NCBI GenBank assembly: GCA_015063285.1
Contig: SUST01000010.1
Location: forward strand, 1 to 51,001
Source: Thermoplasmata archaeon
GTDB lineage: Archaea > Thermoplasmatota > Thermoplasmata > Methanomassiliicoccales > Methanomethylophilaceae
DNA: 51,001 nucleotides
Reading direction: 5' to 3'
The position numbers and the translations under genes were made by a program. Every line of letters begins with the position of its first letter. Position 1 is the stretch's first letter. This document shows, one piece after another, positions 22,192 to 24,795 of the stretch. The notes under the pieces were generated by a model. The model was given only the letters and a program-made list of their open reading frames with translations. It searched no databases and was not told where the DNA came from.

Positions 22192-22602
22192 TCAGAAAGT
22201 GTCGTCCTTCTCTTTCTTGATTCTCTCTTTCTCGGCCTTTGCCTCGGCATCGGACGCCTCGATCTCCTCGAGCTTCGCATCCCTGTCCGCCTTGATGTTC
22301 TCCCTCTCCTCGGACCCTTTAGCCCTGATCTCCTCGAGCTGTGCCTCCCATTCCTCGATGAGTTTCCTGGAGTCGTTGATCTTCTGGACCAGTGAGTCGA
22401 AGCAGTCCTTATGAGATTCGTCACCGTCGTATGTGAAGCGATAGTATTCCTTTCCGATAGTCTCGTAGCATTCTTTGACTTTCTCTTTCTCGGACTTTAT
22501 CTGAGATTGAATCTTGCTAGTATCCTTTGTCTCGTTGAACTTACTCGATATGGATTTTGTCGATGCTTTTGTCTTCTCGAGGGTCTTTTCAAAAAATCCC
22601 AT
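22192..22602 (-). CDS. Coiled-coil protein of unknown function
   Basis: A 136-residue, highly charged soluble protein. It starts MGFFEKTLEKTKASTKSISS, contains a conserved-looking KECYETIGKEYYRFTYDGDE near residue 43-62, and from about residue 70 to the end is a long Glu/Lys-rich helix suited to a coiled coil (LIEEWEAQLEEIRAKGSEER, DAEAKAEKERIKKEKDDTF). The YETIGKEYY segment recalls small prokaryotic proteins that carry a C-terminal zinc ribbon, but no ribbon is present here. It has its own TATA-like region (22631-22645) and a terminator. Confidence 0.7.
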   Translation of the reverse strand: MGFFEKTLEKTKASTKSISSKFNETKDTSKIQSQIKSEKEKVKECYETIGKEYYRFTYDGDESHKDCFDSLVQKINDSRKLIEEWEAQLEEIRAKGSEERENIKADRDAKLEEIEASDAEAKAEKERIKKEKDDTF

Positions 22603-22645
22603 GGTTTATCGCCGGACAGTAAATTAGTTGGCGATTATTTATTAT

Positions 22646-22907
22646 ATGCCCAGATGAGAGTCTGATTTCTCTTCCGTTTAGGTTTAAAATGTATCAACCA
22701 GTTTTTGTATTGTACGGCTTACCGTTCCAATCTGAGAGCTTCATAAGACTCGGCCCTTCCTTTCCAGGCCTGAGTATGCTTGATTATCGATATCATGTAT
22801 TCTCAATTGCCTATCGATATCTACATCTCTTGCCCCCTTTCGCGATTTACACTTTCTCTGAGCATAATACGATTTGTTTTATATATCGTCAGAGAGTAGT
22901 TCGTTTT
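22646..22907. other. Gene-poor AT-rich stretch before the structured RNA region
   Basis: No coding region could be supported here. It holds two copies of TATCGATATC (22785-22794 and 22812-22821) and a TATA-like TTTTATATAT (22877-22886) about 25-30 bases before the GC-rich hairpin region. These may be the upstream control elements and promoter of the RNA gene. Confidence 0.5.
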
Positions 22908-23196
22908 GACTAACGCAACCATTACTCCACAGTAATGAAGCCGGTCAACCGGCTGTTAGGGGCACGCGCCGGGGGTCCATCCCCGGAGAGCGCGGTATCG
23001 CGCCGAAAGGTACGTATCGCGTGATCGCGTGTCGTGCCGCCAGACGTCATGTCGCACCGTTATGGTGCAGGGGTCATTCCCGCGACGGCACAGACTGGTG
23101 GGGGCAGGGGTCATTCCCTACCTCACCAGTCACCAAGTAGTGGGTCAAGCCACTGCGAAACCTACTACTCGGCAGAGGGGCCTAGCCCCCCTGCCA
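22908..23196 (+). ncRNA. Candidate structured RNA with repeated GGUCA-loop hairpins
   Basis: A GC-rich block in AT-rich flanks made almost wholly of stem-loops. Stems: CATTAC/GTAATG (22920-22937), AGCCGG/CCGGCT (22939-22954), CCGGGG/CCCCGG (22969-22986), GCGCG/CGCGC (22990-23003), GTGCCG/CGGCAC (23034-23091, enclosing GCACC/GGTGC and GGG/CCC), GACTGGTG/CACCAGTC (23093-23131, enclosing GGG/CCC), AGTGG/CCACT (23139-23154) and GGCAG/CTGCC (23171-23195). Five hairpins share a GG-TC-(A/C) loop, and CAGGGGTCATTCCC occurs twice (23068-23081 and 23105-23118). A TATA box at 22877-22886 favours the plus strand, but the strand is not certain. Size is near that of archaeal SRP RNA or RNase P RNA, yet I could not find the GGAA/AGCAG core of SRP helix 8 or the GGAAGUC and ACAGA elements of RNase P. 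Confidence 0.6.
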
Positions 23197-23266
23197 CCAT
23201 GTTATAACCATCAGTGATGACAGATATCCGGCCAGACTTTAGTCTTCAAGAACGAAGGGTGCATCC

Positions 23267-23866
23267 ATGCAAAGTATATTCATCATCATAGGCCACCGTG
23301 CTAAGACTACTGGCGACTTTGAATTCAATGATCTCCCGGGTTCAGGAGGGGGCATCGACACATTAGCGAGATGTCTAGCCACCACCTTCTGCCTAAGCAA
23401 TGGAATCAGAAAAGAGCCCTAGGCTTTACTAATCCTCCAAGGCGGAAAGGACGCTCCTAAGACGATCAGAGTGTGCGGCACTGAACTCAAGGGATTGAAT
23501 CCGGATGAGAGGAGTATTGGAGGAATCATACGGGCTGCTCTGAACAAAAAAGCGGAAAGGGGGACATGGACGACAGTCAGCCCCGGAGTGTATGTGTCCA
23601 AAGCATCTTTCGGTGAAGTCCTTCACGAACTGTCAGAGAATGGGGCATCGTTTATTTATCTCAGGGAAGACGGCGAAGACATCATCGATTTCGAATTTCC
23701 GGAACATCCCTGCTTCATCCTGGGCGACAATACCGACCTTACCGAATCGGAAGAAAGTACTCTGCACTCATATCCATGCATAAATGTCTCCGTCGGACCT
23801 CGCAGCTACCATGCTGACCATTGCATCACCATGGTGCAGATCGAATTCGACCGCAGAAATCTATGA
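23267..23866 (+). CDS. trmY: tRNA (pseudouridine-54 N1) methyltransferase with in-frame amber codon 52
   Basis: SPOUT-class methyltransferase that makes m1-pseudouridine at tRNA position 54. The frame runs 199 codons from ATG 23267 to TGA 23864-23866 and is interrupted only by TAG at 23420-23422. Both halves belong to the family: before the amber IFIIIGHRAKTTGDFEFNDL, PGSGGGIDTLARC and LSNGIRK; after it GTELKGLNPDERSIGGIIRA, SPGVYVSKASFGEVLHEL, YLREDGED, FILGDNTDLTESEE and SVGPRSYHADHC. Reading the TAG gives the usual length of about 200. Pyrrolysine is the likely residue because Methanomassiliicoccales decode UAG with the pyl system. An internal GTG at 23471 would give only a 131-residue fragment. 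SD-like GGGTG lies five bases before the ATG. Confidence 0.88.
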
Positions 23867-24000
23867 ACACACAGATTGTAGGTTCGCATCACTCAATGAG
23901 TTCATCATCAATCCGCTGAACAATTGTTTATGTGCTGTGTCCCACGATTAAGGCAATCCAGAATGATATGTTTTTAACGGTGTTCCCCAATTCGTCACTC

Positions 24001-24795
24001 ATGTCAGTTGAATCTGAGAATCTCGAGAACGCTCTGGTGTCTGCAGTCAAGAGTCAGGTCCAGGGAGAAGATGTCGCTGTTGCATTCTCCGGAGGACTTG
24101 ATTCCGGTCTGGTCGCCGCAATCGCCAAAGAGTATGCTAGGTCCGTCACACTGTACACAGCGGGAAAGGACAACTCATACGATGTCGTAATGGCGCAGGA
24201 AATGTCCGAGAGACTCGGTCTGCCTTGGCTCCATATACCTCTTACCGAGGAAAACATAGAAGCGAGGCTCAAAGAGATGGTCTCCATCACAGGAACATCC
24301 AGCCCTCTGACCCTTTCATTCGAACTGCCTCTGTTCTTCGTATGCAGGACAGTCCGTGAAAAATACGTGCTCAGCGGACAGGGTTCCGATGAGCTCTTCG
24401 CAGGATACTCCAAATACATCGGGCTCAGCGAAGATGAACTGGACAGGATGAGGAAGGCCGATCTCGGTAAGCTTATCTCCTCAACAGTACCACATGAGAC
24501 CAAGGTCGCGGATCATTACGGTAAGAAGATCCTGTATCCTTACCTCGATTCGCTGGTTACCATGCAGGTCAACGCTATGGATCTGAAGGAGCTCATACCC
24601 ACCGACCAGGATCACAGGAAGATGCTGCTCAGGCAGGTGGCCAGGGACCTTGGATACCCGTTCATAGCGGAAAAGAAGAAGAAAGCCGCACAATATGGAT
24701 CGGGTACCATGGATCTGGTCCGCAAGGTCGCATCCGACAAGGGTCTGACCTATGCAGAACTCGTTGACAAGATTTACAAAGAGATCTTCGAGTGA
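24001..24795 (+). CDS. Asparagine synthase-like ATP pyrophosphatase without glutaminase domain
   Basis: A 264-residue protein matching only the synthetase half of AsnB. The PP-loop is S30-G-G-L-D-S35 (VAVAFSGGLDSGLVAAIAKE). YVLSGQGSDELFAGYSKY is the second AsnB-type ATP/aspartate motif, and LLRQVARDLGYPFIAEKKKK with AAQYGSG is the C-terminal signature. The N-terminal Cys-dependent glutaminase domain is missing, so ammonia or another amine donor would be used, if it amidates at all. ATG 24001 is chosen because a TATA-like GATATGTTTTTAAC lies about 25 bases upstream; the frame is open to 23932. Its 3' end overlaps the convergent ATP-grasp gene by 22 bases. Substrate unknown. Confidence 0.8.
   Translation: MSVESENLENALVSAVKSQVQGEDVAVAFSGGLDSGLVAAIAKEYARSVTLYTAGKDNSYDVVMAQEMSERLGLPWLHIPLTEENIEARLKEMVSITGTSSPLTLSFELPLFFVCRTVREKYVLSGQGSDELFAGYSKYIGLSEDELDRMRKADLGKLISSTVPHETKVADHYGKKILYPYLDSLVTMQVNAMDLKELIPTDQDHRKMLLRQVARDLGYPFIAEKKKKAAQYGSGTMDLVRKVASDKGLTYAELVDKIYKEIFE

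What the first reader, a model, noticed from the sequence alone, without database searches (positions are those of the whole stretch)
23267..23866. trmY read through an in-frame UAG: probable pyrrolysine-containing tRNA methyltransferase
Family-typical TrmY sequence lies on both sides of a TAG at 23420-23422 (codon 52), in one frame of 199 codons with no other stop. The amber falls just after the segment LSNGIRK, in the core of the SPOUT fold, so a product without read-through would be useless. The known Pyl proteins are mainly methylamine methyltransferases; a tRNA-modification enzyme that itself depends on an amber-decoding tRNA would be unusual and could link translation quality to Pyl supply.
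Basis: partly seen in the sequence, partly recalled or inferred. Interest (0 to 1): 0.85.

Follow-up and report, generated by a model that had tools for sequence, protein, structure and literature searches.

The report
Spare trmY gene with in-frame amber
A methane-making archaeon that can read the amber stop codon as pyrrolysine carries a spare, divergent copy of a tRNA-methylating enzyme gene with one amber codon inside it; the normal gene is intact elsewhere, so the amber looks like a tolerated accident, and the more surprising feature is an undescribed folded RNA that appears to travel with the spare gene.

Summary
Window 23267-23866 is a full-length TrmY-family frame with a single in-frame stop, TAG at codon 52. 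The genome has pylB, pylC and pylD and part of pylS at a contig edge. In the stretches sampled, UAG hardly serves as a stop, and other ordinary genes (NADAR, TnpB, a 2-hydroxyacid dehydrogenase) also carry in-frame TAG. Read-through as pyrrolysine is therefore likely.

The biological reading fails. An intact canonical trmY lies elsewhere in the genome. The TAG copy ("trmY2") is a divergent accessory paralogue, found in 3 of 102 family genomes and lacking several residues invariant in the other TrmYs. Its two orthologues have CGG (Arg) at codon 52. There is no evidence that housekeeping TrmY depends on pyrrolysine. Pyl in a tRNA-acting enzyme was already known (Thg1 of Methanosarcina acetivorans), as were 16 predicted non-methyltransferase Pyl proteins in "Ca. 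M. alvus".

The new element is next to it. About 300 nt upstream folds exceptionally stably, matches no Rfam family, and carries several GUCANN hexaloops. Together with trmY2 it forms a sharply bounded block of about 980 bp that lies in an unrelated place in one other genome. Its function is unknown.

The parts
23267..23866 (+). trmY2: divergent TrmY-family (PF04013) paralogue, 199 codons with one in-frame TAG; start ATG 23267, stop TGA
23420..23422 (+). in-frame TAG (codon 52), candidate pyrrolysine codon; CGG (Arg) in the two orthologues, E/Q codons in the other TrmYs
22911..23208 (+). candidate structured RNA of about 298 nt, 90 consensus pairs, hexaloops of the form GUCANN; 85% identical in G058, no Rfam match
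22876..22886 (+). TATA-like stretch about 27-30 nt before the RNA's 5' end; a TATA-like stretch lies at a similar distance in G058 although the flanks are unrelated (sequence inspection only)
23257..23261 (+). GGGTG, Shine-Dalgarno-like, five bases before the trmY2 ATG; conserved in G058 (sequence inspection)
22910..23890 (+). whole shared block RNA + trmY2: aligns at 81.5% to G058:C12:11944-10968, with unrelated DNA on both sides
22192..22602 (-). 136-aa gene, no Pfam match; left neighbour of the inserted stretch; adjacent to the right neighbour in G064
24001..24795 (+). asparagine-synthase-like gene (PF00733); right neighbour of the inserted stretch

Best explanation
The window holds an accessory TrmY paralogue (trmY2) in a methanogen of the Methanomassiliicoccales kind that decodes UAG as pyrrolysine. 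A UAG arose at a variable position (residue 52, ancestrally probably Arg) and is tolerated because tRNA-Pyl inserts pyrrolysine there; the residue has no special role (neutral gain of Pyl, as described for Thg1). Canonical TrmY, which makes m1-Psi54, is encoded by a separate intact gene. trmY2 belongs to a transferable block of about 980 bp whose other half is a conserved structured RNA; the enzyme has probably diverged in specificity. Shown: the frame, the TAG, the second trmY, most pyl genes, purifying selection, the shared block in two contexts. Inferred: decoding as Pyl, activity, neutrality, mobility mechanism, any role of the RNA.
For: One TrmY match across the TAG. pylB, pylC, pylD and a partial pylS; six of six genus relatives have pylS, five with a called pylT just upstream. 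MtmB x2 and MttB with in-frame TAG. In about 481 kb of the genome, 8 of 367 coding-like ORFs end in TAG, and several of those 8 continue in frame as one gene. NADAR and TnpB domain matches span their TAGs. dN/dS about 0.12 versus G058; on the G000 branch 29 third-position versus 13 first- or second-position changes, none at invariant residues. Intact second trmY. Codon 52 is CGG in both orthologues. Literature: Thg1 with a non-essential Pyl (PMC2933860); 16 extra predicted Pyl proteins and 1.6% TAG stops in 'Ca. M. alvus' (PMC4153887).
Against: No pylT was found in this assembly. pylS is cut at a contig edge and pylT lies just upstream of it in relatives, so an assembly gap is the likely reason, but this is not proved. 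No expression or proteomic data. Selection before the TAG arose would leave the same dN/dS if the TAG is recent. 14 amino-acid changes on the G000 branch against 8 on the G058 branch could hint at mild relaxation. Single assembly; reads not available.
Confidence: 0.68

Rival explanations
1. trmY2 is a freshly broken gene: the TAG is a recent nonsense mutation in a dispensable paralogue and the 51-residue product is inert.
For: The TAG is private to this genome; both orthologues have CGG. The gene is accessory, with an intact trmY elsewhere. Slightly more amino-acid changes on this branch (14 vs 8).
Against: No other stop, no frameshift, and no change at any residue invariant in the family. In an organism whose UAG is rarely a stop, a TAG does not by itself break a gene.
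Confidence: 0.22
2. The TAG is functional: UAG makes TrmY2 output depend on pyrrolysine (hence methylamine) supply, coupling RNA modification to diet.
For: Pyl decoding is likely present.
Against: The codon is not conserved, the position tolerates E, Q and R, and a Pyl-independent trmY exists.
Confidence: 0.03
3. Sequencing or assembly error at 23420-23422.
For: Draft assembly in 33 contigs; reads not inspected.
Against: Going from the CGG of the orthologues to TAG needs two substitutions and no indel; other TAG-bearing genes occur in the same genome.
Confidence: 0.05
4. On the upstream RNA alone: it is a cis-acting 5' leader of trmY2 (for example bound by TrmY2 itself, closing a feedback loop) rather than an independent RNA. 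This is compatible with the best explanation, so its confidence stands apart from the others.
For: Same strand, ends 58 nt before the ATG, shared as one block with trmY2.
Against: No evident structure sequestering the ribosome-binding site; G064's trmY2 has no such leader.
Confidence: 0.35

Closest known systems
TrmY (COG1901/DUF358, PF04013; tRNA Psi54 N1-methyltransferase)
   Same: Full-length family match above the NCBIfam cut-off; predicted fold best matches 2QMM and 3AI9/3AIA; 54 of 80 residues invariant in the comparison TrmYs are kept.
   Different: A separate long-branch clade (100/100 support); GGAGR motif changed to GSGGG/S with loss of an invariant Arg; present beside the canonical gene; in-frame TAG.
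Thg1 (tRNA-His guanylyltransferase family) of Methanosarcina acetivorans, with pyrrolysine at an in-frame UAG
   Same: A tRNA-acting enzyme that acquired one private UAG in a Pyl-decoding archaeon; Pyl not essential for activity (PMC2933860, PMC6471195).
   Different: There Pyl was physically observed; here it is only predicted, and the gene is a second copy.
Predicted non-methyltransferase Pyl proteins of 'Ca. Methanomethylophilus alvus' (Borrel et al. 2014, PMC4153887)
   Same: Same kind of organism and pattern: sporadic in-frame TAG in ordinary genes, homologues without TAG, rare TAG stops.
   Different: TrmY is not named in that list of 16; here the carrier gene is an accessory paralogue.

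Membership tests
TrmY / PF04013 / NF002560 | full-length match above the curated cut-off | tested here: met
   180.2 vs 25.5 bits; 212.6 vs 183 bits
TrmY / PF04013 / NF002560 | family-typical fold | tested here: met
   model pLDDT 74.6, Foldseek top matches 2QMM, 3AI9, 3AIA
TrmY / PF04013 / NF002560 | residues invariant in canonical TrmYs of the same family of organisms | tested here: inconclusive
   54 of 80 kept; R29 and 25 others differ in at least one trmY2; reference set of 28
TrmY / PF04013 / NF002560 | N1-methylation of Psi54 in the tRNA T-loop | not testable with these tools
   needs an assay
pyrrolysine-containing proteins | in-frame UAG with conserved coding sequence on both sides | tested here: met
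pyrrolysine-containing proteins | Pyl biosynthesis and charging genes in the genome (pylBCD, pylS) | tested here: met
   pylB over cut-off, pylC and pylD following; pylS only partial, cut at a contig edge
pyrrolysine-containing proteins | tRNA-Pyl (pylT) | tested here: inconclusive
   not found in the assembly; called in 5 of 6 genus relatives just upstream of pylS
pyrrolysine-containing proteins | UAG position conserved among orthologues (not a strict requirement: Thg1 also lacks it) | tested here: not met
   CGG in orthologues, E/Q codons in others
pyrrolysine-containing proteins | Pyl seen in the protein | not testable with these tools
   needs mass spectrometry
known RNA families (Rfam 15), for the upstream RNA | match at or above the gathering score | tested here: not met
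   none in the window; only chance-level hits at E up to 10 over 22600-23420

The most novel reading that the evidence does not exclude
The RNA at 22911-23208 and TrmY2 form a mobile two-part system: an RNA with repeated hairpins capped by GUCANN hexaloops, and a TrmY/Nep1-like methyltransferase that has diverged from tRNA to bind or methylate those loops (substrate, scaffold or decoy), moving between archaea as one cassette. The TAG in the enzyme gene is incidental.
Probability: 0.12. Interest if true: 0.75.

Novelty: new variant of a known kind. Interest (0 to 1): 0.42.

Why it matters
It corrects a tempting story: the in-frame amber does not make tRNA modification depend on pyrrolysine, because a normal trmY is present. 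It adds another example of amber codons drifting into ordinary genes once an archaeon reads UAG as pyrrolysine. If the RNA-plus-TrmY2 unit is real, it would be an undescribed structured archaeal RNA paired with an RNA-modifying enzyme, a combination that can be tested directly in vitro.

Tried and rejected
Conserved Pyl position: rejected, no other TrmY examined has TAG at codon 52; the two distant hits listed with 'TAG' (G103, G213) show no TAG in their aligned residues 5-197, so it lies at their C-terminal end. Single essential trmY: rejected. Known RNA family: no match. tRNA or tmRNA in the window: none. Phage or viral origin: no match in viral contigs or phage records; plasmid hits are distant Vibrio and Photobacterium TrmYs at 22-26% identity. 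Defence genes: no PADLOC match. RNA in other genomes: the covariance model finds only G000 and G058 in 102 family and 147 order genomes, plus one 58-nt chance-level hit. A dense-hairpin scan was only weakly discriminating. The strong stem-versus-loop bias (8/180 vs 28/111) uses a structure derived from both sequences; with single-sequence structures it falls to p = 0.13 and 0.03, so I do not lean on it. No compensatory double change was seen. A M. alvus tRNA-Pyl probe recalled from memory found nothing; a relative's pylT also found nothing.

Full report
What is there. The frame at 23267-23866 encodes a TrmY-family protein of 199 codons with one internal stop, TAG at codon 52. A single Pfam match (residues 4-197, E 5e-53) and an NCBIfam TrmY match above its cut-off run across the TAG. 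A predicted structure (mean pLDDT 74.6, shallow alignment) best matches the solved TrmY-family structures 2QMM and 3AI9/3AIA; residue 52 falls at the start of the second strand.

The genome reads UAG as pyrrolysine, most likely. pylB is over its family cut-off and the C-terminal part of PylS lies at the very start of contig C13, followed by pylC and pylD. Two mtmB genes have the typical in-frame TAG, as does an mttB. pylT was not found; in five of six genus relatives ARAGORN calls tRNA-Pyl just upstream of pylS, which is where this assembly breaks off. In about 481 kb of sampled sequence, 8 of 367 coding-like ORFs end in TAG, and several of these are themselves genes that continue past the TAG. 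A NADAR protein and a TnpB have domain matches that span their TAG, and a 2-hydroxyacid dehydrogenase has one near its N-terminus. This is the pattern reported for 'Ca. M. alvus': 16 extra predicted Pyl proteins and 1.6% TAG stops (PMC4153887).

But this is not the housekeeping trmY. The same genome has an uninterrupted trmY at C3:23203-23784, 52% identical. Of 102 genomes of the family, only three carry a second full-length copy: this one, G058 and G064. The three form one clade on a long branch (100/100 support) and differ, in at least one member, from the other TrmYs at 26 of 80 otherwise invariant positions, including loss of the Arg in GGAGR. Codon 52 is CGG in both orthologues and GAG, GAA or CAG elsewhere, so the UAG is private and at a tolerant site.

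Is it alive? Against G058, dN is 0.105 and dS 0.86. With G064 as outgroup, this branch has 29 third-position and 13 first- or second-position changes, none at an invariant residue. Selection has held the frame for most of its history; a recent nonsense mutation cannot be excluded. The closest precedent is Thg1 of Methanosarcina acetivorans, where a private UAG is translated as a non-essential pyrrolysine (PMC2933860; PMC6471195). I therefore favour neutral gain of pyrrolysine over both a dead gene and a regulatory role.

The neighbour that deserves attention. The 298 nt at 22911-23208 fold far more stably than shuffled sequence (z -7.8 here, -6.5 for G058) and overlap the most stable 300-nt stretch of the window. 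They match no Rfam family. The G058 copy is identical at 255 of 299 columns (85%), while fourfold-degenerate sites of the adjacent trmY2 are only 54% identical, so the RNA region is itself under constraint. In the consensus fold five hairpins have six-base loops GUCANN or close to it (GUCAAC, GUCCAU, GUCAUU, GUCAUU, GUCAAG here). Limits: two sequences only, no compensatory changes, and the stem-loop bias weakens when the fold is taken from one sequence.

RNA and trmY2 are one unit. The match to G058 starts at 22910 and ends at 23890, with unrelated DNA outside. In G064 the two genes that flank this stretch here lie about 100 bp apart, which looks like the site without the insertion; G064's own trmY2 sits on the other side of the 136-aa gene and lacks the RNA. 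The trmY2 copies of G000 and G058 are closer (dS 0.86) than their canonical trmYs (dS saturated), while the canonical genes put G000 nearer to G064 (dN 0.066 vs 0.127). Transfer of the block explains this best; no transposase or terminal repeats were seen on inspection.

What it might do. TrmY can modify an isolated T-arm, and the related Nep1 recognises C/UUCAAC (PMC9508554). The GUCANN loops resemble these motifs, which suggests, without testing, that the RNA is a substrate, decoy or autoregulatory leader for TrmY2. I give the functional-pair reading 12%.

Verdict. A real in-frame amber, probably read as pyrrolysine, in a spare and divergent trmY: ordinary for such an archaeon. The linked structured RNA is the part worth a specialist's time.

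Noticed in passing
window 22911-23208: Exceptionally stable, Rfam-negative structured region with GUCANN hexaloops, shared with one other genome as a block with trmY2.
   Followed up: yes
L067:6063-7217: TnpB-like protein with in-frame TAG at codon 366 inside the C-terminal DRDxN motif; the Cas12f1-like TNB match spans it.
   Followed up: partly
L053:1704-2135: NADAR-domain protein with in-frame TAG at codon 64, domain match spanning it.
   Followed up: partly
L058:7086-8135, L064:8929-9567, L052:15535-16836: A 2-hydroxyacid dehydrogenase, an HD-domain protein and a protein without a Pfam match, each with an in-frame TAG and coding-like sequence on both sides.
   Followed up: partly
L043 (G064:C196): trmY2 of G064 lies tail to tail with the 136-aa gene and next to an iron-transport-like (FeoA/FeoB-like, by eye) pair, with no upstream structured RNA found.
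   Followed up: partly
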